Positions 341-50,153 of a stretch of 51,364 nt of DNA are shown here, piece by piece (within the stretch, counting starts at the first letter, position 1; every line of letters starts with the position of its first letter). The notes beneath the pieces were generated by a model. The model made no database searches. It saw only the letters and a program-made list of their open reading frames with translations, and was not told where the DNA came from. A program made the translations under genes and the position numbers. The stretch is from contig JAPLGZ010000307.1 of assembly GCA_026389895.1 (NCBI GenBank), forward strand, positions 1 through 51,364. The letters are read 5' to 3'. This DNA is from Chloroflexota bacterium (GTDB taxonomy: Bacteria > Chloroflexota > Anaerolineae > Caldilineales > Caldilineaceae).

Positions 341-556
341 GAAAGAGGTGGGAAGGCCGAAACAGCTCGCTCTGTCCCCCTCCCTTCCCAGGGGGGCGGG
401 AGCCTGCCGGGCGCGCGTGGGGTTGCTTTGCCGTCAACCTGAAGGCCACCGCCACCCCCACCTAACCTCCCCCAAACAGGGGAGGAACTAAGGTGGGAAG
501 GCCGAAATAGATCGTTCTGTCCACCAAGCGGCTCCCTCCCTGTTTGGGGTGGGGTG
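341..556. repeat. Two adjacent copies of dispersed palindromic repeat family A
   Basis: The core GGTGGGAAGGCCGAAA followed by a short variable stretch and TTCTGTCCACC appears at about 347-379 (truncated right end) and 492-525. The second copy is flanked by complementary C-rich and G-rich arms containing CCCAAACAGGGG (about 473-484) and CCCTGTTTGGGG (about 538-549). Related copies occur at 35400-35532 and 43462-43580, so this is a dispersed family and not a local coincidence. Confidence 0.6.
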
Positions 557-6245: not shown

Positions 6246-6307
6246 CGCACGCTATGGTTCATCGCCATGCCTGGGGTTGCCAACCCCTACACCAGTGATT
6301 AAACGTT

Positions 6308-13858: not shown

Positions 13859-13928
13859 CGTAGGTGCGGTTTGTCACCGCACAATACGGCGGGTATGCCA
13901 ACCTGTGCGGTGACAAACCGCACCTACG
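13859..13928. repeat. 70-bp palindromic element with perfect 24-bp arms
   Basis: The arm at 13859-13882 (starts CGTAGGTGCGG, ends CACCGCAC) is perfectly complementary to 13905-13928, leaving a 22-nt loop. It could form a very stable hairpin on either strand. No U-tract follows, so it is better read as a REP/MITE-like repeat than as a classical terminator. Confidence 0.65.
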
Positions 13929-14117: not shown

Positions 14118-16003
14118 TTACCCCTTGGGCCAAGTAAACCAGAATGTTGCCCCTTGTTTTTCGTTGGAAGTCAAGCGAATGGCGCCGCCGTAACTTTCAA
14201 CGGTCTTTTTGACGACGGCCAACCCCATCCCGCTGCCTTCGACCAAATCACGCGGTTGCAGGGTCTGAAACATCTGAAAGACGCGTTCGTGGAATTGTGG
14301 CGCAATGCCCGGCCCATTGTCGGCCACACAAAATTCGACAAAGGCGTCGCCGTCCTGAGCGGATATAGCAATATGACCATCCGGCTGATGATGATGTTTG
14401 ATCGCGTTATCGAGCAGATTGCGTAACACCAACTCCAGCGGGACCCGAAGCGTGCGGAATACCGGCATCTCGACTTGCACCGTGATCGTGAAGAGCCCAG
14501 GCGGGTTGAGCAATTTGAGAATATTGTTGACCAAAACAGTGCTATCCACTTTTCGCTCGGATATTGATAGCGGCCGGCGCGCGAATAGGCGAGCAGATCT
14601 TCCAGCAACTTCTCCATCCGCTGGACACGCCCTTTGAGTTTGGTGAGATGGGTTTTGGAGGCTTCGGGCAAGAACTCATTGGCGTCCTCGGTAATCCAAC
14701 TGGCCAGATTGTCAATCGCCCGCAGTGGCGACCGAAGATCATGCGAGGCCACATAGGCAAAGCGATCCAATTCCTGGTTGCTCTGTTCTAGCTCGACCGT
14801 GCGCTCGGCCACCCGTTGCTCTAAGCTGGCATTGAGCGCCTTTAATTCTTGTTCATAATGCTTGCGTTCGCTGATATCGCGGTTGATGCTCAAATAGCCG
14901 GTAATTTGTTCGTTTTCGTCATAGAGCGCCACCGTGACGCTTTCGGTATAAATGAGGGCGCCATCTTTATGCCGGGTGGTCAGTTCGGCGCGCTGGCGTC
15001 CGCTAACCTTTAACCCGTCAAGCGACTCAGCGATTTGTGGATCGCCACTTTCTGAAAGAATGATCGATTGTACATGCTGGCCTAATACTTCGCTCGCCTT
15101 CCAACCATACATGCGCTCGGCGCCTTGATTCCAGACTGTCAGCCGAAAATTGGCATCTGTCGCCAACACCGCATCATGCATGTTTTTGAGCAGATGAGCA
15201 TGGTAGGCCAGCTGTCGTTCGACCTGTTTGCGTTCGCTCAAATCCAAAATTGCACCCAGAACACGGGTGGCTACCCCCTCAGCATTTCGCATAATCGAGG
15301 CGCGATCCAGGATTTCGGCATATGTGTGATCGGCGCGCTGGTAACGGTATTCCTCACTCCAGGCCGTGGCATTGGCTGCAATACTTGTTTGAAAACTAGC
15401 CACAATGCGCTTCCGGTCGTCGGGGTGGATATGATCGGCCCACCATTGTCGCGAATGTTGTGCATCCAGCGGCCATTGGCCAAAGCGCTGATGATAGGCC
15501 TCATTCCACCACATCTTGCCGGTGATGAGATCCCAATCCCAAATGGCATCGCCGGTGGTGCGCACCGCCAGTGCCCAGCGTTCTTCACTTTCGCGAATGG
15601 TGGCCTCGGCCCGCCACAGCCGTAACAAAGCATTGACATTGGCGAGCAACTCGTCGGCTTCGATGGGGGCGGAGATGTAGGCATCTGCCCCGCCTTCCAA
15701 GGCGCGCGTACGGGTGCCTTGATCGAGATAGGTCGCCGAAATGTGCAACACCATAATCTGGGCTGTTGTCAATGAGGTCTTGATCTGGCGACCCACTTCT
15801 AGGCCACTCATGTCTGGCAGCTTGACATCGAGCAATACGAGCTGGGGTTGGGCTTCCTTTACCAGGCGTAAAGCCTCGCGCCCCGTTTGCGCTTCTAGCA
15901 CGATGTAGCCAGCTCGGCGAAGAATACGGGTTTTTGTATAGAGCCCGATCTCGTCGTCGTCTACATTTAGTATGGTCAGATTATCTGTCGCAGCCATCAT
16001 CAT
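14118..16003 (-). pseudogene. Receiver-PAS-PAS histidine kinase interrupted by a -1 frameshift
   Basis: The reading frame from about 16003 (ATG at 15997 is better placed, 6 nt after GAGGA) encodes a receiver domain (phospho-acceptor Asp59 in LVLLDVKLPD), two PAS domains (about 140-260 and 265-385), and HisKA with the intact box ASHDLRSPLRAI. After the residues YPSEK the frame is lost: the ATPase domain (VDSTVL..., NLLDNAIKHH, DNGPGI, GSGMGLAVVKK) continues in another frame down to 14118. Adding one A to the AAAA run at 14550-14553 (T on the plus strand) restores a 628-residue protein aligned with its sister kinases. As written, the product lacks its ATP-binding domain. This may be a true mutation, phase variation or a homopolymer sequencing error. 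Confidence 0.85.
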
Positions 16004-16085
16004 TCCTCATCATCAACCCTGACCCATCCTTTGCTCATCTTTGCCGAGGAAAAGTGCTGGGTCATTATTCCATATTTTGCACGGA

Positions 16086-18215
16086 TTACTCAAGAATTAA
16101 AACTTCTTTGAGTACTTCGCGCGATAGATTGTTTTTGTTGATAATGGCGTGCGCCTGGGCTGCTAGTAGGCGCTGTTCGGCTTCATCTAACAGCTGCGAG
16201 GTCACAATTACAACGGGGATCGCTTGGGTGTGCGGATCGGCTTTTAATTTTTTCAGCACTTCATAGCCGCTCATTCTAGGCATGTTTAAGTCGAGAAAGA
16301 TCACGCTCGGCTGTAGTGCATACGCCTGGCGTAGGCCTTCCTCACCATTTTCCGCTTCGTGAACCACACCTGGTGCATCGCTGAGTAATTTTGTGATCAA
16401 ATAGCGGGTTGCCTCTTCGTCATCAATCACCAGTAATTGGGTAGTGGTTGCCGGTGGCTCGGCCTGAAGACCCGTGAATTGACTGAGGTGGGCTAAGATC
16501 GCCTCGCGTGTGAGTGGTTTTATACAATAAGCATCCGCCCCCAATGCCAATCCTTTTCGCTGATCTTCAACCGTCGTCGCCACCAAAATCGGAATCTGGC
16601 GTGTTGTTTCATTGGCCTTGAGTTCAGTGAGCAAGCGCCACGACTCTTCGCCGCGCAACATAATGTCCAACACAATGGCGCTGGGTCGCACCTGGGCCAT
16701 CAGCGTGCGCACTTCGCGTAAATTGCGCGCCGACAACAGTTGAAAGTTGGAACCGCGCAGATATTTTTCATAAAGCAAAATTATTTCTGGTTCATCTTCT
16801 ACGAGGAGCACGGGCTGGCGTTGCGGATCGAGCATCCACTCGGCCATGGTAGCCGTAAACTCCTCGGTTGGATCACGATGCTCCAACGGAATGGTGGCGG
16901 TAAAAACTGACCCCACATCTAGTTGGCTGGCCACATCCACGCGGCCACCCAGCAAAGTTGCGAGCCGGCGACACAGTGGCAAACCCAACCCTGTGCCTTT
17001 GACCCGTCCTTGGAGTGGATGTTCAATTTGGGTAAACTCTTCAAAAATCCGCTCCTGGTCTTCTGGCGTAATGCCAACGCCGGTATCGCTGACCGCAAAG
17101 ATCACCGCATCGCCGGTTGGGCTGAGGGTTGCCTTCACCCGCACCTCACCGCGCTCTGTAAATTTGAGCGCATTGGAGATAAAGTTGCGCAGGATCTGCG
17201 AGACCTTTCCTTCGTCGCTGTAGAGAGGTGGAATATCTTTCGGGTCTTCAAAAACTAGATTGACAGCTTCGCTGATCAGCAGGGGCCGTAACATCCCGCG
17301 CAGGGCGCTAAAAAGCGTGGCTGGCGAAAATTCAATCGGGCGCACTTCAATTTTGCCCGCCTCGATCTTGGCCAGATCCAGCAGATCATTGACCATTTCT
17401 AACAACCCTTCGGCACTTTTGCGGATATAGCGCACCTGCTTTTCTTGCTCGCCGGTCAGGTCGCCATCGCTGCGGTCCATGAGCAATTGGGAAAGGGCCA
17501 GAATTGAACTGAGTGGGGTGCGGAATTCGTGGCTCATGTTCGAAAGAAAACGCGACTTCATCTCATCGGCGCGCCGTAAATGATCAGCCTTTTCGTCCAA
17601 CTCGGCATAGAGCGCCACGACACCGCGATTGGTATCTTCCAACTCTTGGTTCAACTGGGCTAATTCTTCGCGCCGTTCGCGTACTTCGGCTAACGCCTGT
17701 AGTAGTTCCTGGTTTTGTTGGCGGATTTCGGCTAAGGGCTCTTGCATTGCGCGGCTGGTTAATTCGCCGACGATCTGCTGTAAACGCGCGGCGGTGACCA
17801 ATGGCGCCCGTTTTGGCAACACTTTTTTTAGCCAGACACTTGTCCCCTGGCCGGGTGTCGACTGGATATCACACTGGTCCATCAGCCGACGCGCCCCGAT
17901 AATACCCAGCCCCATGCCCGTGGGCGACTGGTACTGTTCGGCCAGAATGTGCGCCAACGTAGCAATGCCTGGCCCGCGGTCGCTGATGTGAATCAACAAA
18001 ACTTGGGGCGCTAACTGCCCTTCAAGCTGAAATTCAACCTCGCCACTCTTCGCATAGATAAATGCATTGCGGGCAATTTCAGACACAGCGGTGGCGATGC
18101 GGGTCTGGTCTTGTTGGTCGAAGCCCAAGAGATCGGCGACTTGGCGCGCCCGCTGCCGCGCGCCAACCACATCTTGTTCATATTTGATCGGAAGAGTCAG
18201 GATAGGAACGCTCAT
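16086..18215 (-). CDS. RsbT-like ATPase / histidine kinase / double-receiver hybrid protein
   Basis: A 709-residue hybrid. Residues 1-135 form an RsbT/RsbW-type GHKL ATPase (Glu46 and Asn50 in SEIARN, DRGPGI at 79-84, GMGLGIIGARRL). A coiled coil (145-220) precedes HisKA with His229 (MSHEFRTPLSS) and HATPase_c (about 335-445; NALKF, DTGVGI, GTGLGLPLC), followed by two receivers with phospho-acceptors Asp517 (IVLDIM) and Asp642 (FLDLNMPRMSG). It lies 79 bp downstream of the RsbX-like phosphatase gene. The RsbT-like head would let it touch stressosome STAS proteins while the body runs a phosphorelay, so it is the best candidate link between stressosome and two-component output (inference). The ATG is poorly served by a ribosome site, which suggests coupled or weak translation. 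Confidence 0.9.
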   Translation of the reverse strand: MSVPILTLPIKYEQDVVGARQRARQVADLLGFDQQDQTRIATAVSEIARNAFIYAKSGEVEFQLEGQLAPQVLLIHISDRGPGIATLAHILAEQYQSPTGMGLGIIGARRLMDQCDIQSTPGQGTSVWLKKVLPKRAPLVTAARLQQIVGELTSRAMQEPLAEIRQQNQELLQALAEVRERREELAQLNQELEDTNRGVVALYAELDEKADHLRRADEMKSRFLSNMSHEFRTPLSSILALSQLLMDRSDGDLTGEQEKQVRYIRKSAEGLLEMVNDLLDLAKIEAGKIEVRPIEFSPATLFSALRGMLRPLLISEAVNLVFEDPKDIPPLYSDEGKVSQILRNFISNALKFTERGEVRVKATLSPTGDAVIFAVSDTGVGITPEDQERIFEEFTQIEHPLQGRVKGTGLGLPLCRRLATLLGGRVDVASQLDVGSVFTATIPLEHRDPTEEFTATMAEWMLDPQRQPVLLVEDEPEIILLYEKYLRGSNFQLLSARNLREVRTLMAQVRPSAIVLDIMLRGEESWRLLTELKANETTRQIPILVATTVEDQRKGLALGADAYCIKPLTREAILAHLSQFTGLQAEPPATTTQLLVIDDEEATRYLITKLLSDAPGVVHEAENGEEGLRQAYALQPSVIFLDLNMPRMSGYEVLKKLKADPHTQAIPVVIVTSQLLDEAEQRLLAAQAHAIINKNNLSREVLKEVLILE

Positions 18216-18294
18216 AAGGGTAAGGGTTAGATTGAAATAAAAAACGCTCTAATGTTACGTTTCGGGCGCCCTGGGGGCGCGCCAAGCAACTGCT

Positions 18295-19305
18295 CTATGC
18301 TTCCCGCTCTTGAATGACAAGCACCGTCACATCATCGCGCTCGCGTGTGAAGTCGCGATAGAGGACGCCAGCTACCAGACTGGGATCGTGAGTGATGAGG
18401 CCGGGATAGTTGGCGAGATCCCAATGGGTCGTTAGACCATCCGAATGCAAGATCAGGCGCGCATTGGCCGACCACGGTGTGGTGAATTCTTGAACTTTAC
18501 GCATTTCATGGCCGACAATCCCATTATGTGAGACTAGGTGCCGGCGTTGGCCACCCTCATTGACTTGCGCGCTGATATTGCCAATGCCAGCAAAATGTAC
18601 GATCTGCTGCGACCAATCCACCTGGGCCACCGCCACCGCCGCACCGCGTGTGCTATGGGCGGCCGCATGGGCAACGGTTAGATAGGCGGCGGGGGCCAAG
18701 GTTGGATGCGTATCCAGAACCTGGGTGATCGTTTGCGCGGCTTTGGCTGCATCTGGGCCATGCCCCAACCCATCGGCCACTACAACTGCATAACCATTCG
18801 CCTGGGGTCTGACGGCCCAACCATCACCGCAAAGTTGTTCGCCCGCTTTGGGCAAGGAGACAACACCCAAGTGGTAGGTGGGCCCGAGTGACGGCGCAGG
18901 CCTGGGCTGCAACCAAAAGCGCGCCAAGATTGCCGTGCCTGTGCCCATCTGGGAATAGAGATCAAACTCAGTTGCCAGCCGGCTGATCGCGCCCAGCCCA
19001 GTGCCAGAACTGCCGGCCGTCGAATAGCCATCGCGCAAAGCTTCGTCAATGTTTACAATGCCTGGCCCACGATCCAGCGCCAGCAATTCCAGCCCTACGT
19101 TCCCGGCTTGCTCTAGAGCTCGGATCACTAATTGACCCTGCGTGGCATGTTTCAGCAAATTCGTCGCTGCTTCGGTAACCACCAGGGCGATTTTACCAAT
19201 TTCCGTCTCGTTGAAATTCAGCTTGTAGGCTATATCACTCATCACACGCCGCACTTCTGCTGTCTGGCTGGCTTCTGTGATGGGGAAACATCGTTGTACT
19301 TGCAT
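18295..19305 (-). CDS. RsbT-like ATPase fused to SpoIIE/RsbX-type phosphatase
   Basis: A 336-residue protein. Residues 1-135 are an anti-sigma/RsbT-type ATPase (N-box TEAATNLLKH, DRGPGI at 78-83, GTGLGAISRL). Residues 145-336 are a PP2C-like SpoIIE domain with metal-binding acidic residues in CGDGW (Asp161) and VADGLGHG (Asp178). In the B. subtilis stressosome RsbX dephosphorylates RsbR and RsbS and resets the complex; this protein most likely does that here. The ATG at 19305 is chosen because AGGA sits 9 nt upstream; in-frame TTG (19353), GTG and ATG (19344) codons lie further upstream without a clear site. The start is 241 bp after rsbT, with a GC hairpin between (19470-19495). Confidence 0.88.
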   Translation of the reverse strand: MQVQRCFPITEASQTAEVRRVMSDIAYKLNFNETEIGKIALVVTEAATNLLKHATQGQLVIRALEQAGNVGLELLALDRGPGIVNIDEALRDGYSTAGSSGTGLGAISRLATEFDLYSQMGTGTAILARFWLQPRPAPSLGPTYHLGVVSLPKAGEQLCGDGWAVRPQANGYAVVVADGLGHGPDAAKAAQTITQVLDTHPTLAPAAYLTVAHAAAHSTRGAAVAVAQVDWSQQIVHFAGIGNISAQVNEGGQRRHLVSHNGIVGHEMRKVQEFTTPWSANARLILHSDGLTTHWDLANYPGLITHDPSLVAGVLYRDFTRERDDVTVLVIQEREA

Positions 19306-19469
19306 AATTTGAGTTCCTGAGTGCAAGATGGGTTCACTGCTCATCCGCACCAATTCTTGATTATTGCTTAGTACAGTGTTCGTTCAGTTAGGCGACCATT
19401 TGTAGATTCGGCTTCGGCTTTTAACTGGACAAGGCCGTTAACCAGTCTTTTGCCAGCCTACTGATCCGG

Positions 19470-19495
19470 CTTGGCGCGGCTTGTCACGCGCCAAG
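19470..19495. terminator. GC-rich hairpin between rsbT and the RsbX-like gene
   Basis: CTTGGCGCG, an 8-nt loop and CGCGCCAAG form a perfect 9-bp stem. No U-run follows on the minus strand, so it would at most attenuate readthrough or mark a processing site within the stressosome operon. Confidence 0.35.
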
Positions 19496-19546
19496 CGTGA
19501 CCTACCTAATACTACGAACTACCGAACTATTCACTTTACGCTATAC

Positions 19547-19951
19547 CTATTTCCAACGCGTAATACTGACCCGTGTGCCCTCACCAGGGCGTGAGAAAAT
19601 TTCAAATTCATTGGACAAGCGCTTTGCGCCGCTTAGCCCCAGGCCCAGACCGCCACCTGTGGTATAGCCATCTTTGAGGGCTAATTCGATATCGAGAATG
19701 CCAGGGCCTTGATCGATAAAGGTGAGGCGTAAGCCCGATCGAATACCCTTCTGCACGATTTCGAGTTGCACCTCGCCGCCACCGCCATACCCAAGGGTAT
19801 TGCGCGCCAATTCACTGGCGGCAGTCACAATTTTGGTCTGATCCACCAGGCTGAACCCCAAGGTAACAGCCCATTGCCGCACCATCTGGCGCACGCGTAC
19901 GACGTCTTCCGAAGAGCGAATCGGCATGACCTCATCGCGCTGAACTGGCAT
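19547..19951 (-). CDS. rsbT: Stressosome serine/threonine kinase RsbT
   Basis: At 134 residues it matches the usual RsbT length. It shows the GHKL ATPase motifs: N-box ASELARN, the G1 box DQGPGI and the glycine-rich lid GGGLGLGLSGAKRL. In the family, RsbT is held by the RsbR/RsbS complex, phosphorylates their STAS domains under stress, leaves and activates a partner (RsbU in Bacillus). No RsbU is present here, so the target is probably one of the adjacent two-component proteins. The ATG at 19951 is fixed by AAGGAG about 8 nt upstream; an in-frame TTG at 19972 is not needed. It overlaps rsbS by 20 bp, so translation is coupled. Confidence 0.93.
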   Translation of the reverse strand: MPVQRDEVMPIRSSEDVVRVRQMVRQWAVTLGFSLVDQTKIVTAASELARNTLGYGGGGEVQLEIVQKGIRSGLRLTFIDQGPGILDIELALKDGYTTGGGLGLGLSGAKRLSNEFEIFSRPGEGTRVSITRWK

Positions 19952-20321
19952 TGGCCATCTCCTTTTGATCAAGCATGGTCCTCAATAATTTCATGCCTGA
20001 ATCCACATTCAAGGCTGTACGCACCCCTGGCAGCGATAAGCCCAATTCAACTAGTGTGATCGCCACGGCTGGTTGCATCCCGACAACGACCGTTTCGGCA
20101 TCCAGCACCCGCGCCATAGCAGCAATGTTGCCAATCATGCGCCCAATAAAAGAGTCTACAATTTCTAGCGAAGAGATATCCATCAAGACACCCAGCGCCT
20201 GCGTCTTGACGATTCGCTCTGTTAGATCATCCTGCAATGTCATGACTAACTGATCATGCATATCTACCTGAATCGTAACCAGAAGAAAATCTCCCAGTTT
20301 GAGAATCGGAATTCGTTCCAT
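19932..20321 (-). CDS. rsbS: Stressosome scaffold/antagonist RsbS
   Basis: A single-domain STAS protein of 129 residues. The N-terminus ERIPILKLGDFLLV and the segment VDSFIGR match the B. subtilis RsbS pattern; Ser57 of VDS aligns with its phosphorylated Ser59. With RsbR it should form the icosahedral stressosome core that sequesters RsbT. The ribosome site GGAG lies 8 nt before the ATG. It is 73 bp downstream of rsbR and overlaps rsbT, the canonical R-S-T order. Confidence 0.94.
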   Translation of the reverse strand: MERIPILKLGDFLLVTIQVDMHDQLVMTLQDDLTERIVKTQALGVLMDISSLEIVDSFIGRMIGNIAAMARVLDAETVVVGMQPAVAITLVELGLSLPGVRTALNVDSGMKLLRTMLDQKEMANASSAR

Positions 20322-20394
20322 TGTCTGGCTCCATGTAAGGAGTGATGTGTCGTCCTTGATCTGTGAAGAATTTTGATGACACAGGAATGATCAC

Positions 20395-21258
20395 TTATTT
20401 GTTCGCTCGTGTGAAAGTGGCGCCTGTCCGTTGTAGGGCGATGGCAAAAGCGGCGGCAAGCGTCGCCTTTGTCGTCACGGCCGAGAGATCGACGCCAAGA
20501 TGGACAATGGTTTGGGCGATCTGAGGGCGGATGCCGCTGATAATACAATCTGCTCCCATCAAGCGCGCCGCCGCTACAGTTTTGAGCAGATGCTGGGCCA
20601 CCAAGGTGTCTACGGTAGGCACGCCCGTGATATCAATAATCGCAATGCTGGCGCCTGTATCGACAATCTTTTGCAAGAGATTTTCCATCACCACCTGGGT
20701 GCGGGCGCTATCTAGCGTGCCGATCAAGGGCAGGGCCAGAATATTTTCCCACAATTGCACAACCGGCGTAGAAAGCTCCAGCAATTCTTGCTGCTGGCGG
20801 GCAATCACGTCTTCACGGCTCTTTTGATAGACTTCCACCGTGTAGAGCCCCAGTTGATCGAGCAACAGATTGGTGGTCCAGATATCTTCTGCCAGAAGAT
20901 CGGGTTGCTTTTCTAACTCTTTGCGTAAGCGTGTCAAAAGCGGTTTCTTGAGCGACAAGACGAAAGTAGCCGTTTCGGCTGGGTTAAAACCCTGTTGGGC
21001 GCGTGTGTTAGAGATGTTCGCCAGCAATTCGCGCACCGGCAACCATTCCGGCGTGTTTGTATCGGTGAGACTGCCATGTTGCACGGCGTTGCGCAAACTG
21101 TTCATCAACTGGCGCGATTGTTCGCGGAGTTCTGCTTCTTTTAGCAGACCAGTGCGCCGAGTTGCCGTTGATAATTGGTTGTTAAGCCAATCGGTTAGCA
21201 GCTCTTGTTCATATTGCTTGAGTAGTTCAGGAAAATAACTTTGGCTATTGATCGTCAT
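20395..21258 (-). CDS. rsbR: Stressosome sensor protein RsbR (RsbRD-like)
   Basis: A 287-residue RsbR paralogue. The N-terminal domain (about 1-150) is helical, of RsbRD_N/RsbU_N-like appearance and not a globin or PAS domain. A linker helix (EDVIARQQQELLELSTPVVQ) leads to a C-terminal STAS domain (about 165-280) with DITGVPTVDT; Thr218 sits at the position of the phosphorylated Ser of RsbS, and Thr250 in RPQIAQT is a second candidate. The N-terminal domain should protrude from the stressosome as sensory turret; its signal is unknown. It is the first gene of the rsbR-S-T run, with AAAGGG upstream of the ATG. Only one RsbR is present, so any signal diversity probably comes from the kinases nearby. 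Confidence 0.92.
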   Translation of the reverse strand: MTINSQSYFPELLKQYEQELLTDWLNNQLSTATRRTGLLKEAELREQSRQLMNSLRNAVQHGSLTDTNTPEWLPVRELLANISNTRAQQGFNPAETATFVLSLKKPLLTRLRKELEKQPDLLAEDIWTTNLLLDQLGLYTVEVYQKSREDVIARQQQELLELSTPVVQLWENILALPLIGTLDSARTQVVMENLLQKIVDTGASIAIIDITGVPTVDTLVAQHLLKTVAAARLMGADCIISGIRPQIAQTIVHLGVDLSAVTTKATLAAAFAIALQRTGATFTRANK

Positions 21259-21393
21259 CTGCGGTGCCCTTTATTCAAAAGTAATGATTAATTTGCTTGT
21301 TTTATGGCCTGGCCAGCCGGCTATCATCTTTGGCGCACGTTCCAGATTCTGCCACCATGCATCCCCAAAGGCCAAAATCTTGGTTTCTGTACT

Positions 21394-21816
21394 TTAGGGT
21401 AAGTTCTCTTTCTGTTGGAGCTTTTTATGCATACGTTCGCTCAAATATTGTTTTCCACTAAGCACCGCATAGATCGCATCGATGAGCACCTCCGGCGCTT
21501 GTTCTTTCATAATATACCCGCGTGCCCCAGCCGCGAGCACCCCTTCGACCAAGAGGGCTTCCTCGTGTCCCGAAATGACAAGCATGAGCAGATCTGGCTG
21601 CGTCACTTTTAAGTGGCGCACAAGATCGACACCGCTCATGCCAGGCAGCGACACATCAATGAGGACAAGATCGGGCGCGCAGATCGGAATTGTTATGAGT
21701 GCATCTTCGCCAGAGGCCGCCTCACCACAAACTTCTAGATCAAGCTTACGCTTGATCAGTGAAATGTATCCGCGGCGGATTACGGCATGATCTTCGACAA
21801 TAAAGATTTTACCCAC
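21394..21816 (-). CDS. NarL-type receiver protein without HTH output
   Basis: A 140-residue protein beginning with GTG at 21816, where AAGGAA is positioned 8 nt upstream and the receiver fold starts immediately (GKIFIVEDHAVIRRG). The longer in-frame extension to 21921 has no homologous look. The phospho-acceptor is Asp54 in LVLIDVSLPGMSG, followed by VISGHEE and the Lys of YIMKEQAP. This is the receiver half of NarL/FixJ regulators, but the protein stops after the LSERMHKKL helix, with no LuxR-type HTH. It therefore cannot bind DNA by itself and probably acts by protein contact. A HisKA_3 kinase, the usual partner class, lies at 628-1770. It is 135 bp upstream of rsbR and could be co-transcribed with it. 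Confidence 0.85.
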   Translation of the reverse strand: MGKIFIVEDHAVIRRGYISLIKRKLDLEVCGEAASGEDALITIPICAPDLVLIDVSLPGMSGVDLVRHLKVTQPDLLMLVISGHEEALLVEGVLAAGARGYIMKEQAPEVLIDAIYAVLSGKQYLSERMHKKLQQKENLP

Positions 21817-21972
21817 AGAATTTATTCCTTTTTTACATGCTGCGCCACCAGAAACTAGCTCCTGGTGTATCGAGTGGATAAGCTGGGGCCAATCAAAATG
21901 TGTGCTCAATCTATCAGTCAAAGCGACTCTGCTGTTTTAGACACCACATTCCCTTAAAAACCCTCGATCGGT

Positions 21973-22431
21973 TTACATGAAGAATGTAGAATTATTTTGG
22001 ACTTTGAGAGGAAATTCCACCACGCGCTCATAAGACGTGAACAGAGTGACGATATCGCTAAAATCTCGATCGATATTGGATTTGAGTAGATAGCCTGCGA
22101 TCTGCTCGTTGTAGGCGGCCATCTTGTCGGCTTCACGATTCGATGTGGTCAGCACAAAAACAATGCTCTGACACAATTCGGCATCTTGCCGCAATGCTTT
22201 TAAGAACTCGATGCCATTCATGCGTGGCATATTAATATCTAGTAAGATCAGATAAGGCCGCGGTAAACGAGGATGACCTGCTTCTCCACGTAGGATGCCT
22301 AGGGCCTCTATGCCGTCGGGGACAACGGTAAAGGGATTGGCGATTTTTTGTCGTTTAAAGGCCCGCACAATCGCTTCTGCATCGATCTCATCATCTTCCA
22401 CTAGTAAAATTTGCACAGTCTTATCGGACAT
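21973..22431 (-). CDS. Rcp1-type CheY-like response regulator (copy 2)
   Basis: A 152-residue lone receiver with LLVEDDEID, phospho-acceptor Asp65 in LILLDINMPRMNG, VLTTS and the Lys of YLLKS. It is a clear paralogue of the receiver at 1767-2207; they share long blocks such as VVPDGIEA and AAYNEQIAGY and diverge in the last 15 residues. The ribosome site AAGGGGG lies just before the ATG. It follows the REC-PAS-GAF kinase by 178 bp, the kinase/Rcp1 order also seen at the other end of the island, so it is the probable phosphoryl acceptor of that kinase. Confidence 0.9.
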   Translation of the reverse strand: MSDKTVQILLVEDDEIDAEAIVRAFKRQKIANPFTVVPDGIEALGILRGEAGHPRLPRPYLILLDINMPRMNGIEFLKALRQDAELCQSIVFVLTTSNREADKMAAYNEQIAGYLLKSNIDRDFSDIVTLFTSYERVVEFPLKVQNNSTFFM

Positions 22432-22609
22432 AGGTCCCCCTTCGTTTCAGTGAACAACTGGCGAGTATCTAGGATTTTTCGCCCTTATCGTTTATCTGTG
22501 TCGCCGTTACTGGCTTGCCTGCGTTCAATAAAGCCGCGGATTGTAATAATAGCACAATTTTAGCATTATGTACTGTAAGTTTATCTCATCAATTCGTCTG
22601 ACCTTTTGC

Positions 22610-25108
22610 TTACGTTACCTTGGGCCAAATAAAACGGAAGGTGGCTCCGCGTCCTTGACCAGATGCGACGGTGATGACGCCCCCGCGATTTTCAATGAGC
22701 TTTTTGACGACGGCCAGACCCATCCCACTGCCTTCTATTTTATCACGCGGCTGTAAGGTCTGGAACATCTGGAAGATCCGTTTATGGGCTATTTCAGGGA
22801 TGCCGGGACCATCATCGGCCACGCTGAATTCAACGGCATCCTTCAGGTCGTGGGCCGTGACATGTATATTGCCATCTGTGCGGTCATGATGTTTGATCGC
22901 GTTGTCGAGCAAGTTTCGCAAGATCATCTCCAATGGCACGCGTTGGGTGAGCAACACCGGCATCTCCTTTTCGATGGTAATGCGGAAATCTGCAGGCAAT
23001 GGGAGCATGCGGATCAGATCGGCGACGAGCGCTGCCGTATCCACTGATTCGGATTTGTCCTGTTGGCGACCCGCCTGTGCATAGGTTAGCAGATCGTCAA
23101 GTAGTTTTTGCATTCGTTTGATCCGCCCGCGCAGTTTGAGCAAATATTCCTGCGCAGTGGGCGACAGCCTACTATTGGGGTCCTCATCAATCCAACTGGC
23201 CAAATTGTTGATGGCACGCAGTGGGGCTTTGAGGTCATGCGAAGCGATGTAGGCGAATTGATCAAGCTCCTGGTTGCGGCGCATCAATTCGTCGGTGCGT
23301 TCGGCCACGCGCTGCTCTAAGGTCTCGTTGAGCGCCCTTAGTTCGATTTCCTGATGTTTGTGCGCGGTGATGTCGTAGTTGACGCCAATCGCACGCACGG
23401 GCTGGCCTTGATCGTCACGGATGACCGTGCCATGCCCACCCAACCAACGCACTTCGCCATCTGGGCGCACAATGCGAAAGGTCGCTTGATAATCTTCACC
23501 TTGTTCTAATAGCGCATTGAGCTTATAAATCTGAGCGGCGCGGTCTTCGGGGTGGATATGCGCGAGGAGTGTGTCGAGTTGGAGGTCTGTTGTTTGTGGA
23601 TCAAGCCCAACCAATTCGTATTCATGTTCGTCCCAGGTGATCTGGTTGGCTGCGAAGTGCCAATCCCAGGTGCCCATATCGCCAGCCTGTAGCGCCAAAC
23701 GTAGCCGTTCCTCATTCGCCTTCACCGTCCAAGTGGCGTGGGCGCTTTCGATGGCCGGCCAAAAACGGGTGGCTATCGTCTCTAGCAGGACCACCTCATC
23801 GTCGCGCCAACGGCGCGGCTTGGCGGCTGTCACCATAAGCATGGCCACCGAGCAACCTTCGTGCCGACAGGGCACGGCGAGTAAACTCTGGGTCTGAAGC
23901 TGGGCCACGTCTGCTGAGACAGTCGATGTGGCGTCGATCAAAACAGTATGGCCAGCCTGGACTTCAGCCAGCATGGTTGGTGTCACGAGTGCTGCCAGTT
24001 GTTCATTCGCTAGGTCATTCGGCAAGGTCTGCTGCCAATCAAGTGGGCAACTGTTGGCGGGGACGGTTTGGTTCAGAATATAAAAAATGCTGCGGTCTAC
24101 CTTTAGATGCAGGCGCAACCTGCTGAGAATAAGCGTGATCAGCGCCCGAGGATCAGACAACATGCGAAATTGGTCGCCTACAGCAACCAGAAATTGTTCG
24201 TTGAGTTCGGCTCGTTTACGGGCGTCGATATCGGTGGAAGTGCCAAACCACTGAATAATTCTGCCCTGCGGATCTTGAATCGGCGCACCGCGTTCTAAGT
24301 GCCAACCATAAATGCCATCGGCACGGCGCAGCCGAACTTCGCTCTCATAGGGTTCGCCGGTCTGGAGTGAGTGTATCCATATAGCGTAGTTTGACGCCAG
24401 GTCGTCGGGATGGATTGCCGGCCATAATCCTTGCTCTAGGGTGGCGGCTAGCGTCATCCCCGAATAGGCGAGCCAGCGTTGATTCACATAATTTAAGTGA
24501 CCAGCCGCATCTGTGCTCCAAACAATTTGGGGCATGGCATCGGCTAGTTGCCGAAAGTAGACCGCACTGATCTGTAATGCTTGGCTGGCTTGTTCGCTGG
24601 TGGGGGGTGCTTGCGCTGGCTTGTTGACAGGCAGGATCTGCCTTGCCTGTCGCCGCTGCCATCTTTGTGTCGCAGCAAACCGCTCCAGCGCAGCAAGCAC
24701 CATGTGGCGCAAAGATTCGGCCGTAGGCTGCGACTTATCAAGGATATCTTGGACGCCAGCGGCAAAGGCTTGTGCTATAAGCTCATCATCCAGGCCGTTG
24801 GTCAAAAGTAGCACTGGCGCAGGTAAAGAGCCGGTTTCGCCTTGCCAGTGCTGCAAAATTTCTAAATAAGGCAGATCAGACAGGTGGCGGCTAAGTAAAA
24901 TGATGTCGGGTGGCGTTGGTGAGGGTGGCGCATTTACAGCTGCAGACATTGACGTTGATCGATAATATTGAAGCCCAGCCGCTCCGCTTGTGGCTTCAGA
25001 AAAGAAAAAGGGCTGCACCAAACTTTGGCGTAAGCTGTGCATGATCCTGGTGCGATCCTCAGCAACGTCATCAATGAGGAGGATGTGTAGTCCGCCAGCT
25101 GATACCAT
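22610..25108 (-). CDS. Pseudo-receiver/PAS/GAF/PAS sensor histidine kinase
   Basis: An 832-residue kinase. Residues 8-140 have a receiver fold (ILLIDDVAED), but the phospho-acceptor is Ser73 (IILLSRHLSD) and a Ser/Pro-rich insert precedes it, so this is a pseudo-receiver. Next come PAS (about 185-300), GAF (about 310-470), PAS (480-610), a coiled coil, HisKA with ASHDLKAPLRA and HATPase_c (NLLDNAIKHH, DDGPGI, GSGMGLAVVKK). The ATG at 25108 has GAGGAG 4 nt upstream and begins right at the receiver fold; an in-frame start at 25153 is less likely. It is the first gene of the 25-kb signalling island on the minus strand. The upstream leader contains CTCCTC able to pair with the ribosome site. Confidence 0.9.
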   Translation of the reverse strand: MVSAGGLHILLIDDVAEDRTRIMHSLRQSLVQPFFFSEATSGAAGLQYYRSTSMSAAVNAPPSPTPPDIILLSRHLSDLPYLEILQHWQGETGSLPAPVLLLTNGLDDELIAQAFAAGVQDILDKSQPTAESLRHMVLAALERFAATQRWQRRQARQILPVNKPAQAPPTSEQASQALQISAVYFRQLADAMPQIVWSTDAAGHLNYVNQRWLAYSGMTLAATLEQGLWPAIHPDDLASNYAIWIHSLQTGEPYESEVRLRRADGIYGWHLERGAPIQDPQGRIIQWFGTSTDIDARKRAELNEQFLVAVGDQFRMLSDPRALITLILSRLRLHLKVDRSIFYILNQTVPANSCPLDWQQTLPNDLANEQLAALVTPTMLAEVQAGHTVLIDATSTVSADVAQLQTQSLLAVPCRHEGCSVAMLMVTAAKPRRWRDDEVVLLETIATRFWPAIESAHATWTVKANEERLRLALQAGDMGTWDWHFAANQITWDEHEYELVGLDPQTTDLQLDTLLAHIHPEDRAAQIYKLNALLEQGEDYQATFRIVRPDGEVRWLGGHGTVIRDDQGQPVRAIGVNYDITAHKHQEIELRALNETLEQRVAERTDELMRRNQELDQFAYIASHDLKAPLRAINNLASWIDEDPNSRLSPTAQEYLLKLRGRIKRMQKLLDDLLTYAQAGRQQDKSESVDTAALVADLIRMLPLPADFRITIEKEMPVLLTQRVPLEMILRNLLDNAIKHHDRTDGNIHVTAHDLKDAVEFSVADDGPGIPEIAHKRIFQMFQTLQPRDKIEGSGMGLAVVKKLIENRGGVITVASGQGRGATFRFIWPKVT

Positions 25109-25112
25109 AGTT

Positions 25113-25144
25113 CTCCTCTTTTTGTCTCCTCTTTCACTGAGGAG
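25113..25144 (-). promoter_or_regulatory. Possible ribosome-site-masking leader hairpin
   Basis: On the minus strand CTCCTC (25144-25139) is followed by GAGGAG (25131-25126) and again by GAGGAG (25118-25113), which is the ribosome site 4 nt before the ATG at 25108. The CTCCTC could pair with either GAGGAG, giving two alternative structures, one masking and one freeing the site. This is seen as sequence only; no aptamer-like domain was recognised. Confidence 0.3.
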
Positions 25145-25390
25145 ATCGAACACCTTATTCAGTTACTGATGAACAAATCATGCAAAGTCACGACCGACTC
25201 ACTCAGATCGATGAACGACAGGCGACGTAGAAGCGGCTTGACTTTAGAAAAAGGGGCAGAGTTTTGGCAAGCCATGATTGGGCTACTAGGGAACTTAGTC
25301 GCCTCGGCGACTTCTTGTGCTGTCGGCCCAAAATTTTAACCCTGGGGCTGGGCGCTCAAAGCCACACCAGTAATCGAGCTGCTCAAGTTG

Positions 25391-31688: not shown

Positions 31689-31743
31689 TAAGGGCAAAAA
31701 AAGTAGGGGTCAGGCATGCCTGACCCCTACTTTTTTGCCCTTA
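31689..31743. terminator. Perfect bidirectional terminator palindrome
   Basis: The 55-bp sequence is almost completely self-complementary: TAAGGGC, an A7 tract, GTAGGGGTCAGG, a CATG centre, and the mirror image with T6 and GCCCTTA. It gives a GC stem followed by a T-run on both strands. It sits 65 bp downstream of the transketolase stop and upstream of the AI-2E pair. The core is the kind seen as a dispersed repeat, so it may be a mobile repeat used as terminator. Confidence 0.85.
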
Positions 31744-35244: not shown

Positions 35245-35538
35245 TAGCCGTTGTCAACGGATTTTGGGAACGGATTGAACGGATGGAAGTGGAGAATCCG
35301 TTCTTGGTCGTGTATAGCCACAGATTAGGGCGCAAGCAATCCGCTCAATCCGCTCCCCGAATCCGCTGACCGTGGTTTTGTCAATTAAGGGTAACAGCAG
35401 GAACCCTACCCGCGCCCAAAGGGCTCCCGCTCCCCTGGTAAGGGAGGGGACTGATTGGTGGAAGGCCGAAATGACGCGTTCTGTCCACCAAACGGCTCCT
35501 CCCCTTACCAGGGGGAGGCTGGGTGGGGGTTCTTTGCT
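35245..35538. other. Convergent intergenic region filled with repeats
   Basis: Between the stop codons of the Gfo dehydrogenase and the deacetylase-like gene. An imperfect inverted repeat rich in AACGGATT/AATCCGCT lies at about 35253-35369, followed by repeat family A at 35400-35532. Either could end transcription from both sides. No gene is supported. Confidence 0.6.
35400..35532. repeat. Dispersed palindromic repeat family A, copy 3
   Basis: The core GGTGGAAGGCCGAAAT ... GTTCTGTCCACC (35457-35489) is flanked by CCCCTGGTAAGGGAGGGG (from 35432) and its mirror CCTCCCCTTACCAGGGGG (to 35515). The same design is found at 453-556 and 43462-43580. Confidence 0.7.
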
Positions 35539-40713: not shown

Positions 40714-40789
40714 AAACCGAGTGCAACGCACGGTGGACGATAATGATGAGTATGGATGATTGGTCGCCACCGTGCGTTGCACTCGGTTT
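40714..40789. repeat. 76-bp palindromic element with perfect 23-bp arms inside the sugar ABC operon
   Basis: The arm at 40714-40736 (AAACCGAGTGCAACGCACGG and three more bases) is perfectly complementary to 40767-40789, with a 30-nt loop. It lies between the binding-protein gene and the first permease gene, where stable stem-loops often protect the upstream transcript. It may be a captured REP-like element. Confidence 0.7.
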
Positions 40790-42289: not shown

Positions 42290-42296
42290 GCGTGTG

Positions 42297-42382
42297 AAAA
42301 AGCGGCCTCACCCCCGACCCCCCTCTCCTGAATCGAAAGGCTGAGTTCAGAAGAGGGGGCGGGGGGGGTGAGGTCGCTTTTT
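42297..42382. terminator. Bidirectional terminator / repeat family B, copy 1
   Basis: AAAAAGCGGCCTCACCCCC (from 42297) and its near-mirror GGGGGTGAGGTCGCTTTTT (to 42382) form a long C/G-rich stem with T-runs at both ends; the inner parts carry CTCCTGAA and TTCAGAAGAGGGGG. It begins 3 bp after the stop of the Gfo gene and lies just upstream of the sugar operon promoter, isolating the two. A related sequence lies at 46219-46278. Confidence 0.8.
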
Positions 42383-42384
42383 AC

Positions 42385-43437
42385 TTAAAAATTATTATCA
42401 ACCGGCACCATCTGCCCGGTGCGCGCCGACTCGATGCCGGCCACGAGCGCCGCGATCACGCGCGCTGCATCAATCGCCGACATCTGCGGTTGCGCTTTGC
42501 CTTCAATACAATCTAAGAAATGTTCGCATTGCTCGGCAAAATGGTGCACCTGGCGCGTGTCGTGGACACGCGGTTTGTGGTCTTTGAACTGCTCGCGATA
42601 ATCGTGGATAATTTCGGTGCGATGCTCTTCGCGGTTGTTGCGATAGAGCTTGCCGCCCCATAACGTGCCTTCGGTGCCGTAAAGCGTCAAATGTCCACCA
42701 GTTGGGGCATAACCCCGGTTGCCCGATGCCGCAATTAATTTGCCGATCGCACCGTTGGCAAAGGTTAGGGAAACTACATAACAATCATTTAAGGGTAAGA
42801 TTGGTTCGGCTTTGTGGTTGGCAAAGGCAAACACCTGAGTCACTTGGGTCTGCAATGCCCACAACATCAAACCCAGTGGATGACAGCCACCACCCAGTAG
42901 AATATCTTGAGCCGCTTGTGCATTCGTGCGCCACGGGGTTTGGCTGTTCGGGCCGTAAACGGAGCGCAGGTCGGAAATGTAATCACCCTCCGCTAGCCAG
43001 ACTTCGCCAATTTCGCCGGTTTGGTAGGCCGTGGCCATCGCTTGGTAATCGGGTCGGAAGTGATAGACATGGCCGCCCAAGAAGGTTAAACCGGTCTCGC
43101 GTACATCCTGCACAATGCGTGCGGCATCTTCGCGCGTGGTACACATGGGCTTTTCGCACAGCACATGCTTGCCGGCCCGCAACGCGGCGTGGACTTGTTC
43201 GCCATGCAAATGATCCGGTGAACAGATCGAAACCGCCTGAATATCGGGTCGCGCTAAAAACTCATCCAGCGCTCCGTATACCTGGGGGACGCCAAGCCGC
43301 TCTGCTTGTTCCTGCGCTTTGTCCGCATCTACGTCATAGATCGCCAAAACTTCACAACGCGCGTCGGTCTGATAGCCACGAATGTGACCTTCCGCCGCAA
43401 TCCCACCACCGCCGATAATGCCAATGCCGATTGTCAT
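42385..43437 (-). CDS. Gfo/Idh/MocA-family oxidoreductase (second copy)
   Basis: A 350-residue dehydrogenase with the Rossmann motif GIGIIGGGGIAAEGHI at the N-terminus, the conserved CEKPMCT block with its Lys, and a C-terminal domain with GGCHPLGLMLWAL. The ATG at 43437 follows AAGGAAACAAGC. An in-frame extension to 43539 is rejected because it reads through repeat family A. Together with the sugar importer downstream it may act on the imported compound; the substrate is unknown. Confidence 0.9.
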   Translation of the reverse strand: MTIGIGIIGGGGIAAEGHIRGYQTDARCEVLAIYDVDADKAQEQAERLGVPQVYGALDEFLARPDIQAVSICSPDHLHGEQVHAALRAGKHVLCEKPMCTTREDAARIVQDVRETGLTFLGGHVYHFRPDYQAMATAYQTGEIGEVWLAEGDYISDLRSVYGPNSQTPWRTNAQAAQDILLGGGCHPLGLMLWALQTQVTQVFAFANHKAEPILPLNDCYVVSLTFANGAIGKLIAASGNRGYAPTGGHLTLYGTEGTLWGGKLYRNNREEHRTEIIHDYREQFKDHKPRVHDTRQVHHFAEQCEHFLDCIEGKAQPQMSAIDAARVIAALVAGIESARTGQMVPVDNNF

Positions 43438-43461: not shown

Positions 43462-43580
43462 CAACCCCACCCTAACCCTCCCCTGGTAAGGGAGGGGACC
43501 GATTGGTGGATAGAAGAAATTGGTCATTATGTCCACCAAACAACTCCCTCCCTTACCAGGGGAGGGTTAGGGTGGGGTTG
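43462..43580. repeat. Dispersed palindromic repeat family A, copy 4, with perfect 35-bp arms
   Basis: The arm 43462-43496 (begins CAACCCCACCCTAACCCTCC) is an exact reverse complement of 43546-43580. The 49-bp centre contains TTGGTGGA (43503-43510) and TCCACCAA (43532-43539), a second nested pair. The element lies between the transhydrogenase stop and the Gfo start. Its perfect arms suggest recent activity or strong constraint compared with the decayed copies elsewhere. Confidence 0.8.
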
Positions 43581-43628: not shown

Positions 43629-45035
43629 TCATCCCAACCGATTGATCCCGTCAAACGCCGCGGTTTTATAACATTCAGCCAGGGTTGGATAGTTAAAGAC
43701 GGTGTTGACAAAATAATCAACTTTGCCGCCAAAGGCCATCACCGCTTGCCCGATATGGATCAACTCGGTGGCGCCTTCACCAATGATGTGGACCCCCAAA
43801 AGTTCGTGGGTTTCCATATGAAAGATCAGTTTGAGCATGCCCGTGCTGTCCCCAATAATCTGGCCGCGGGCGATCTCGCGATAGTGTGCTTTGCCTACTT
43901 CATAGGGAATCCCTTGCGCCGTTAATTCTTCTTCGTTGCGCCCCACCGTCGAAATTTCTGGAATGGTATAGATGCCATAAGGAAACAATTCGGGCACACT
44001 CGTGGCATCAACCCCATGCGCGTGACAGGCCGCCAGCCGGCCTTGCTCCATCGACGTGGAGGCCAGACTAGGGAAACCAATCACATCGCCCGCCGCATAG
44101 ATGTGGGGCACTTCGGTCTGGTATTGTGCATTGACCTGCAAACGCCCGCGCGTATCGGTGCAGAGACCGGCGGCTTGCAAATTTAATTTATCGGTTGCGC
44201 CGGTGCGACCAATACTGTGCAGCGCTGCTTCCGTAATAATATGTTTGCCGCTGGCGAGATGAATATGGACACGTTTGCCGCGCTTGACATCATCGACCAC
44301 CTCGAAGCCTTTGACTTCTTCTCCCAACCGTAATGTCACGCGACTAGAACGCATGTGATAGGCCAAAGCATCAATGATTTCGGCATCGACAAATGGGAGT
44401 AAGCGCTGGCGTTTATCGATCACCGTGACACGAACCCCCAACGCTGCGAAGATACAGGCATACTCGATCCCGATCACACCGGCCCCCACCACCGTCATGG
44501 TGCGTGGCAAATGTTTAAGGTTGAGGATATCATCACTGATCAGAATGTGTTGGCCATCAAAGGTGATATGGGCATCTTTGGTGGCGCTGGTGCCTGTGGC
44601 GATCACAACTGCGCCCGTCGTCACATCCCGATAGCCGCGGCCATCGACGTAATAGAGGCGAATCGTATGTGGATCGACAAAAGCCGCTTCGGCCGCAAGC
44701 AGTTCCACCTGGTTGCGCATCAGCTGATGTCGGGTCACGTCAATTTCGTGGCGGATCACATGCTCGGTGCGAAAGACCAGATCGTCCATCGTGATATGTT
44801 GCTTGACAGTATAAGAGGCGCCATATAGACCGCGCTCCCGATAGCCAGAAAGGTGTAACACCGCTTCGCGCAGGGTTTTGCTGGGAATGGTGCCTGTGTT
44901 AATGCAGACCCCGCCTAGCACCGCTTTGCGCTCCACAATCCCCACCCGTTTATTCAACTTGGCCGATTGAATGGCCGCGCGTTGTCCAGCTGGGCCAGAG
45001 CCAATCACGAGTAAATCATATTCATAGTCTGACAT
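43629..45035 (-). CDS. sthA: Soluble pyridine nucleotide transhydrogenase
   Basis: A 468-residue FAD flavoprotein. It has the FAD-binding GSGPAGQRAA motif (12-21), an NAD(P)-binding Rossmann repeat (GAGVIGIEYACIFAALG) and the C-terminal dimerisation domain. In the disulfide motif of related oxidoreductases the second Cys is Thr49 (CINTGTIPSK), as expected for SthA, which lacks a redox disulfide. It interconverts NADPH + NAD+ with NADP+ + NADH and so balances the pools fed by sugar oxidation. The ATG at 45035 follows AGGAG; a longer in-frame extension is not conserved. Length matches the family (about 466). Confidence 0.92.
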   Translation of the reverse strand: MSDYEYDLLVIGSGPAGQRAAIQSAKLNKRVGIVERKAVLGGVCINTGTIPSKTLREAVLHLSGYRERGLYGASYTVKQHITMDDLVFRTEHVIRHEIDVTRHQLMRNQVELLAAEAAFVDPHTIRLYYVDGRGYRDVTTGAVVIATGTSATKDAHITFDGQHILISDDILNLKHLPRTMTVVGAGVIGIEYACIFAALGVRVTVIDKRQRLLPFVDAEIIDALAYHMRSSRVTLRLGEEVKGFEVVDDVKRGKRVHIHLASGKHIITEAALHSIGRTGATDKLNLQAAGLCTDTRGRLQVNAQYQTEVPHIYAAGDVIGFPSLASTSMEQGRLAACHAHGVDATSVPELFPYGIYTIPEISTVGRNEEELTAQGIPYEVGKAHYREIARGQIIGDSTGMLKLIFHMETHELLGVHIIGEGATELIHIGQAVMAFGGKVDYFVNTVFNYPTLAECYKTAAFDGINRLG

Positions 45036-45349
45036 GCGTTCTCCTGTCTGCGTCAACGTGAAGCTGGCTTTATGATTGGTCACTGGGTCAGATGGCCCAG
45101 TTTTTAGCTTCTTCGCCCCTTTGCGCGACCGAACGACATTGTTCAATGATTTTTCGTTTATGGCTGGACTGTCGCAATAAGCGGCGTCAAATATGAGTGA
45201 ACCATTCATATTTGACGCCGCCTGCAGTCTTTAAGCCCACTGTCAATAACAATTCGCTTGATGGTTGGTGGGGCATATGAACGAGCTGCCCCGATGATTT
45301 CACATTTTGATGATCGAAAGCTTAAGAAATTTAGCCTTGTTTTTTAACG
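45036..45349. other. Intergenic region with a strong hairpin
   Basis: The 314 bp between polyphosphate glucokinase and transhydrogenase hold one clear structure, the stem-loop at 45181-45221, and otherwise AT-rich sequence. The transhydrogenase promoter should lie here, but no good -35/-10 pair was found. Confidence 0.5.
45181..45221. repeat. Perfect 16-bp stem-loop
   Basis: GCGGCGTCAAATATGA (45181-45196) pairs perfectly with 45206-45221 across a 9-nt loop. No U-tract follows on the minus strand, so it may be a regulatory hairpin or a REP-like repeat instead of a terminator of the glucokinase gene. Confidence 0.65.
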
Positions 45350-46115: not shown

Positions 46116-46290
46116 GTAACGCGGGCGCCTCACCGCCGCACCCAGCCGTGAACGAGTGGGCTAAGTTCACGGCTGGGTAGACATGTGGTTGCTGTGCGCC
46201 GCTTCTACTGAAGCGTCCCCCTCCCCTGAAACAGCCGGGTGCCCCTCGGGCGCGTTCAGAAGAGGGGGCGGGGGTGAGGCTCCGCGTTAC
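46116..46290. repeat. Composite inverted-repeat element (family B, copy 2)
   Basis: Outer arms GTAACGCGG (46116-46124) and CCGCGTTAC (46282-46290) enclose a perfect 13-bp hairpin CCCAGCCGTGAAC/GTTCACGGCTGGG (46141-46177) and a C/G-rich pair CCCCTCCCCTGAA / TTCAGAAGAGGGGGCGGGGG (46217-46274) related to the element at 42297-42382. It lies between the aminotransferase stop and the glucokinase start. Confidence 0.65.
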
Positions 46291-46358
46291 GATGAATGAA
46301 TAGATTGCGCCTTTGATAGGGAGCTACACAAGAGCGCATACCGTTAGTTGCCTAGGAA

Positions 46359-50075: not shown

Positions 50076-50153
50076 CGTGAGGCGTGATAAGTGATAAGTG
50101 AGATAGGACTGAGTACTTGGTCAACCTTCACGTATCACTTATCACGCCTCACG
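50076..50153. repeat. 78-bp element with perfect 21-bp inverted arms in the ABC operon
   Basis: CGTGAGGCGTGATAAGTGAT plus one base (50076-50096) is perfectly mirrored at 50133-50153, with a 36-nt loop. It lies between the binding-protein and permease genes, the same relative position as the 23-bp element in the sugar ABC operon, and could stabilise the upstream binding-protein message. Confidence 0.7.

What the first reader, a model, noticed from the sequence alone, without database searches (positions are those of the whole stretch)
43462..43580. Dispersed palindromic repeat with perfect 35-bp arms
This copy of family A has flawless arms and a nested inner repeat; other copies at 341-556 and 35400-35532 share the core GGTGGAAGGCCGAAAT...TTCTGTCCACC but have decayed arms. 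Perfect symmetry suggests mobilisation in trans or a selected role in RNA structure.
Basis: partly seen in the sequence, partly recalled or inferred. Interest (0 to 1): 0.55.

Follow-up and report, generated by a model that had tools for sequence, protein, structure and literature searches.

The report
Palindromic transposable element with triplex-motif arms
The perfect palindrome is one of at least a hundred copies of a small non-coding mobile repeat whose two arms are a DNA motif long known from many bacteria, and its relatives in sister bacteria carry the end marks of a known transposase family, which suggests how this puzzling motif gets around.

Summary
In detail: 43462-43580 has perfect 35-bp arms and an inner 8-bp repeat. 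It is one of at least 100 copies in this 8.77-Mb draft genome. Each arm is the "intrastrand triplex motif" (TM; BoxC, PIT) of Holder et al. 2015, so the element is an inverted TM pair. The 8 of 95 copies with perfect arms of 30 bp or more have two arms of one type. In sister species the same pair is bounded by GTAACTRCYC-type inverted repeats and 8-bp target duplications (4 of 11 exact, 9 of 11 with at most 2 mismatches); 15 elements with other palindromes share these ends. IS66-family elements in two sister genomes have similar ends and exact 8-bp duplications, as does ISDge4 of Deinococcus in print. Best reading: an IS66-type MITE carrying TMs. In the window's own genome the ends are mostly eroded (22 of 170 recognisable), duplications are gone (1 of 75) and no IS66 transposase was found. 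Holder et al. found no association of their E. coli motif with mobile elements; this supplies one. A RAYT partner found no support.

The parts
43462..43496 (-). left arm: triplex motif (TM) read on the minus strand: third strand 43465-43472, TTA loop 43473-43475, purine stem 43476-43483, loop 43484-43489, pyrimidine stem 43490-43496
   Evidence: motif of PMC4666352
43497..43545 (.). centre, with inner 8-bp repeat 43503-43510 / 43532-43539
43546..43580 (+). right arm: TM on the plus strand: pyrimidine stem 43546-43552, loop 43553-43558, purine stem 43559-43566, TTA loop 43567-43569, third strand 43570-43577
   Evidence: motif of PMC4666352
43580..43592 (-). remnant of the right terminal inverted repeat (read on minus: ATAACGAGCAAAC; a sister genome has GTAACTACCAAGC); no counterpart recognisable on the left
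35400..35532 (+). second copy, with a long GC-rich module in its left arm
441..556 (+). third copy; both arm loops differ from the usual one in the same way (CAAACAGG / CCTGTTTGG)
346..424 (+). partial copy next to the third one
42385..43437 (-). neighbouring gene: Gfo/Idh/MocA oxidoreductase
43629..45209 (-). neighbouring gene: pyridine nucleotide-disulphide oxidoreductase

Best explanation
The repeat is a non-autonomous transposable element (MITE), 103 bp end to end in sister species and about 145 bp in this genome (inferred). Its body is two triplex motifs (TM/PIT/BoxC) in inverted orientation around a short centre, and its ends are short GTAAC-type inverted repeats. It was spread in trans by an IS66-family (ISBst12-like) transposase that makes 8-bp target duplications. 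Shown here: copy number, arm anatomy, ends and duplications in sister species, and IS66 elements with similar ends. Inferred: that the window's own copy arrived the same way long ago; its left end and its target duplication are no longer visible. Its arms look perfect because both are type A; arms of one copy also resemble each other more than arms of different copies, which I attribute to palindrome correction (hairpin-templated repair) or gene conversion rather than to a recent jump.
For: At least 100 copies in the own genome. Arms match the TM consensus; where the purine stem has five Gs before the A, the third strand is of the GGT type in 28 of 29 arms, against 3 of 99 other parsed arms. 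Sister species: 8-bp flanks at anchored ends of 11 hairpin elements differ at 0,1,2,3,5 positions in 4,3,2,1,1 cases, with no exact match at 5, 6, 7 or 9 bp; 15 elements with other palindromes: 0,1,2,4,5,6 in 5,4,2,2,1,1 cases. End 11-mer GTAACTRCTCA 367 times in G027 against 3 for the reversed control. IS66 transposases (NF033517, E about 1e-93) in G018 (two copies, ends GTGACTATTCAGGCTG, duplications GAAAATAC and TCAATTTG) and in G034 (ends GTAACCGTTCAGATG, duplication CCTAATTC). ISDge4 ends and 8-bp duplication in print. In the own genome 22 of 170 ends match the sister-species end at the right offset, against 0.1% of control positions. Arms of one copy match better than mispaired arms (0 of 5000 permutations reach it).
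Against: Own genome: only 1 of 75 copies has an exact duplication and there is no other excess, the GTAACTRCTCA end is not enriched (7 against 11) and no IS66 transposase was found (a draft with 908 contigs). Two alike copies on different contigs (96.6%) show no recognisable ends, so spread by another route is possible. The window copy has a recognisable end on one side only. No clean empty site was obtained; G018's site keeps the left end and looks like a deletion. In one search the shuffles include some self-pairs.
Confidence: 0.66

Rival explanations
1. REPIN-like element: each arm is a REP-type hairpin unit and the inverted pair is moved by a Y1 (RAYT) transposase, without target duplication.
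For: Inverted pairs of hairpins with a variable centre look like REPINs; own-genome copies lack duplications; close copies without GTAAC ends exist; seven Y1_Tnp genes occur in the own genome.
Against: None of the seven Y1 genes has arm-like repeats in up to 1.5 kb on either side. Sister-species copies have 8-bp duplications, which Y1 enzymes do not make (recalled). No GTAG tag beside the hairpin in the alignments (tags as in PMC3733652).
Confidence: 0.15
2. Selected structural element: the palindrome is kept for a DNA or RNA function (triplex, cruciform, mRNA hairpin) and its dispersal is old.
For: Arms stay symmetrical while ends and duplications have eroded; loop and purine/third-strand changes go together; the hairpin unit with RACTG is found across phyla.
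Against: Copies vary much in the centre and are often asymmetrical (median perfect run 15); Holder et al. and the work they cite found no promoter or terminator activity of the E. coli motif. Palindrome correction explains symmetry without selection.
Confidence: 0.13
3. The TM pair is passive cargo: short IS66-type inverted ends captured an already widespread palindrome once in this bacterial family, as they captured unrelated palindromes. This concerns origin and does not exclude the best explanation, which concerns movement.
For: The same ends enclose several unrelated palindromes, one element only 42 bp long; TM hairpins in cyanobacteria lie inside elements with quite different ends.
Against: Order of events was not dated.
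Confidence: 0.4

Closest known systems
BoxC / PIT / intrastrand triplex motif TM (Holder et al. 2015, PMC4666352; abstract, passages, sections 15 and 18, and part 1 of 20 seen)
   Same: pyrimidine stem, purine stem, TTA (type A) or other 3-nt loop (type B), G-rich third strand; intergenic; five inverted pairs in E. coli K-12
   Different: in 4 of the 5 K-12 pairs the motifs face the other way; in sister species of the window the pair sits inside IS66-type ends with 8-bp duplications, whereas the paper reports no association with mobile elements
IS66 family, ISBst12 group, e.g. ISDge4 of Deinococcus geothermalis (PMC12898284; passages seen)
   Same: ends 5'-GTGACTACTCAGCA / 5'-GTAACTGCTCAGCA and an 8-bp duplication in print; sister-species elements end in GTAACTRCTCAG or close variants with 8-bp duplications
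   Different: the present element has no transposase gene, is about 103 bp end to end in sister species, and its own-genome ends are diverged
REPINs and GTAG/CGTC REP repeats (PMC3116915 in search listing only; PMC3733652 abstract, passages and sections 5 and 14 seen)
   Same: inverted pairs of short hairpins, many copies, dimers of like or unlike units
   Different: no GTAG tag, no RAYT nearby, 8-bp duplications in sister species

Membership tests
Intrastrand triplex motif (TM/PIT/BoxC) | three G/C-rich blocks (Y stem, R stem, third strand) with short loops, second loop of TTA or another 3-nt type | tested here: met
   window arms read directly; own-genome arms tallied
Intrastrand triplex motif (TM/PIT/BoxC) | folds into a triplex | not testable with these tools
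   needs CD or NMR; done for E. coli motifs in PMC4666352
MITE of the IS66 family | no transposase gene, short, terminal inverted repeats | tested here: met
   sister species; own genome only partly (22 of 170 ends)
MITE of the IS66 family | 8-bp target duplication, in sister species | tested here: met
   4 of 11 hairpin elements exact, 9 of 11 with at most 2 mismatches
MITE of the IS66 family | 8-bp target duplication, in the window's own genome | tested here: not met
   1 of 75 copies, no excess otherwise; therefore the window copy itself is called a decayed relative, not a proven member
MITE of the IS66 family | ends match an autonomous IS66 element | tested here: met
   sister-species left end against G018 IS66: 10 of the first 12 bases; against ISDge4: 11 of 12. 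Own-genome L047 end: 6 and 7-9 of 12
REPIN / RAYT system | Y1 transposase gene flanked by the repeat | tested here: not met
   0 of 7 genes
REPIN / RAYT system | GTAG-type tag beside the hairpin | tested here: not met
   alignments

The most novel reading that the evidence does not exclude
The triplex motif found across bacterial phyla is dispersed as palindromic cargo of MITEs: different transposase families in different phyla (IS66-type ends with 8-bp duplications in Caldilineaceae; AGGATGTTTGRWAAGT-type ends beside CTNAG in filamentous cyanobacteria) repeatedly enclose the same hairpin, and short inverted ends tend to capture palindromes in general.
Probability: 0.35. Interest if true: 0.72.

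Novelty: new variant of a known kind. Interest (0 to 1): 0.5.

Why it matters
BoxC/PIT/TM repeats have been known since the 1990s in many bacteria without an explanation of how they spread; Holder et al. state that they found no association of the E. coli motif with mobile elements. Copies with the ends and target duplications of a named transposase family give a testable route: IS66-type transposition in trans. It would also explain why unrelated palindromes in these genomes share one pair of ends.

Tried and rejected
RAYT partner: seven Y1 genes, no arm-like flanks. Rfam: no match in the window. Element-specific 31-base pattern in viral contigs: no match. Autonomous partner in G027: the only convergent end pair about 3.2 kb apart that I saw in the listed part of its hits encloses ordinary-looking frames and no recognisable transposase by eye; L137 likewise. 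IS66 in the own genome: 1 candidate scored, no match. Empty sites by four joined-flank queries: none base-perfect; one deletion scar, two syntenic sites lacking the element. Cyanobacterial elements: 23 of 122 pattern copies have both AGGATGTTT-type ends, with CTNAG on the left in 16 and on the right in 16 of 23, but a true 5-bp duplication is only weakly supported (7 exact against 4.2 by shuffling). Blind duplication search in 56 sister-species copies: 10 with 8 bp or more against about 1.3 by shuffling. Literature: sequence strings and topic searches gave no paper linking the motif to IS66 or to MITEs; that library lacks most subscription journals.

Full report
Check of the observation. The 119 bp at 43462-43580 have perfect 35-bp arms (43462-43496, 43546-43580) and an inner 8-bp repeat. 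They lie in the gap between two minus-strand genes, a Gfo/Idh/MocA oxidoreductase and a pyridine nucleotide-disulphide oxidoreductase. Relatives in the window are at 35400-35532, 441-556 and, in part, 346-424.

Genome-wide. The window is a whole contig of an 8.77-Mb, 908-contig draft. DNA searches and a covariance model built from 42 copies found matches; all 150 scored of 1472 first-look candidates matched, many on both strands because the element is palindromic. In the 77 stretches that I fetched and the window, 100 non-overlapping copies were found, of which 95 were long enough to compare arms. The rest of the genome was not scored, so 100 is a lower bound. Some copies lie in twos about 130-155 bp apart.

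Anatomy. Each arm has a pyrimidine stem, a loop, a purine stem, a 3-nt loop and a G-rich third strand: in the right arm CCCTCCC-TTACCA-GGGGAGGG-TTA-GGGTGGGG. This is the intrastrand triplex motif described as BoxC, PIT or TM (PMC4666352; abstract, passages, sections 15 and 18, and part 1 of section 20 seen). In the own genome 128 arms could be parsed; the second loop is TTA (type A) in 57 of them (the parse leaves the other arms unread and splits some loops arbitrarily). Where the purine stem has five Gs before the A, the third strand is of the GGT type in 28 of 29 arms, against 3 of the 99 others, as a triplex would want; common descent of two arm types would give the same. One side of the centre usually reads ACTGAT, the other GCCG on the opposite strand.

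Perfect arms. Perfect runs of 30 bp or more occur in 8 of 95 copies (maximum 38) and in 0 of 95 mispaired arms. The arms of one copy match each other better than arms of different copies (22.9 against 20.3; 0 of 5000 permutations reach it), but a copy's own partner is on average only at the 62nd percentile. All eight have the same loop type on both arms, seven of them A and A, including the window copy. Loop variants also tend to pair with their like. So perfect symmetry marks same-type pairs and some within-copy homogenisation, for which correction within the palindrome is a sufficient explanation (inference).

Relatives. Of 61 genomes searched, the own one included, 15 had a match. In one sister genus (g7) the same hairpin pair is bounded by GTAACTRCYC-type inverted ends, mostly 103 bp apart. 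With ends anchored by that motif, 11 distinct hairpin elements have 8-bp flanks with 0, 1, 2, 3 and 5 mismatches in 4, 3, 2, 1 and 1 cases; 15 elements with other palindromes have 0, 1, 2, 4, 5 and 6 mismatches in 5, 4, 2, 2, 1 and 1 cases; shuffled flanks mostly differ at 4-8 positions, and no exact match exists at 5, 6, 7 or 9 bp (shuffles include self-pairs; copies without a recognisable end motif on both sides were left out). A blind search on 56 copies, from several genera, gave 10 repeats of 8 bp or more against about 1.3 by shuffling, and none of 6 bp or more in 25 of 56. The 11-mer GTAACTRCTCA occurs 191+176 times in G027 against 2+1 for the reversed control; G030 21+15 against 0+2; G018 6+11 against 1+1; G032 8+14 against 3+3; G034 17+20 against 11+13; G006 0+1 against 3+2.

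Transposase. PF03050 (IS66) was found in 3 of 10 genomes searched, and not in the own one nor in G027, which has most of the ends. Two nearly identical copies in G018 (1549 bp) have ends GTGACTATTCAGGCTG on both sides and exact 8-bp duplications (GAAAATAC, TCAATTTG); one in G034 (1582 bp) has GTAACCGTTCAGATG and CCTAATTC. Both proteins pass the NCBIfam IS66 cut-off. Published ISDge4 of Deinococcus, an ISBst12-group IS66 element caught transposing, has ends GTGACTACTCAGCA and GTAACTGCTCAGCA and an 8-bp duplication (PMC12898284, passages); IS66 elements of Frankia also made 8-bp duplications (PMC11946415, passages). The sister-species element's first 12 bases agree with G018's IS66 at 10 and with ISDge4 at 11 positions.

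Own genome. The sister-species end GTAACNNCCAAGC is recognisable (8 of 11 bases) at the expected offset in 22 of 170 ends against 0.1% of control positions; the right end of the window copy is one of them. But only 1 of 75 copies has an exact duplication, with no other excess; the GTAACTRCTCA form is not enriched (7 against 11). Two alike copies on different contigs (96.6%) show no such ends. Thus the own-genome family is old or was later spread by another route.

Presence and absence. For a G027 insertion the orthologous place in G018 lacks the body but keeps the left 11-bp end, so it looks like a deletion by short homology. For a G023 insertion, G006 and G018 lack the hairpin in the gap beside the same gene; for a G032 insertion, G006 lacks it in the next 300 bp. 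These are absences in synteny, not base-perfect empty sites. A further query found both flanks only in its own genome.

Wider. In E. coli K-12, 4 of the 5 regions with published pairs have the GGGGACYG tail on one arm, and in 4 of 5 the pair faces the other way from the window element. In the same 122 pattern copies, 23 lie between AGGATGTTTGRWAAGT-type ends next to CTNAG, those that I saw being cyanobacterial; a duplication there is only weakly supported. In the own genome the unit is also nested in larger palindromes, and one composite occurs with its inner unit in both orientations.

Conclusion. The element is ordinary in kind (a MITE), but its combination, triplex-motif arms inside IS66-type ends, was not found in print with my searches and offers a mechanism for the spread of a well-known orphan repeat.

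Noticed in passing
L276, L277, L282 (own genome): Larger composite palindromes: in L276 and L277 the same outer flanks enclose the inner element in opposite orientations; L282 is an inverted repeat with 146-nt arms, 97% complementary.
   Followed up: partly
window 13859-13928, 40714-40789, 50076-50153, 31697-31736: Other palindromes with arms of 20-26 bp, 96-100% complementary, unlike the present family; no GTAAC ends seen beside them.
   Followed up: partly
window 42290-42370 and 46250-46330: A further G/C-rich pair (CCTCACCCCCGACC... / ...GGGGGCGGGGGTGAGG) that resembles a type-B triplex motif.
   Followed up: no
L119/L136 (G018:C14:1139-1180): A 42-bp element that is almost nothing but two IS66-type ends, with an 8-bp flank repeat at 7 of 8 positions.
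   Followed up: partly
L129 (G027:C97): A GTAAC-bounded element that seems to sit in the loop of another palindrome, with an exact 8-bp duplication.
   Followed up: no
window 2478-13555 and 14171-25153: Very long minus-strand open frames (up to 2415 aa) with repeated segments shared by four of them; they look like multi-domain sensor proteins, not tested.
   Followed up: no
L149-L266, mostly cyanobacterial loci: Triplex-motif hairpins inside elements with AGGATGTTTGRWAAGT-type ends and CTNAG flanks.
   Followed up: partly
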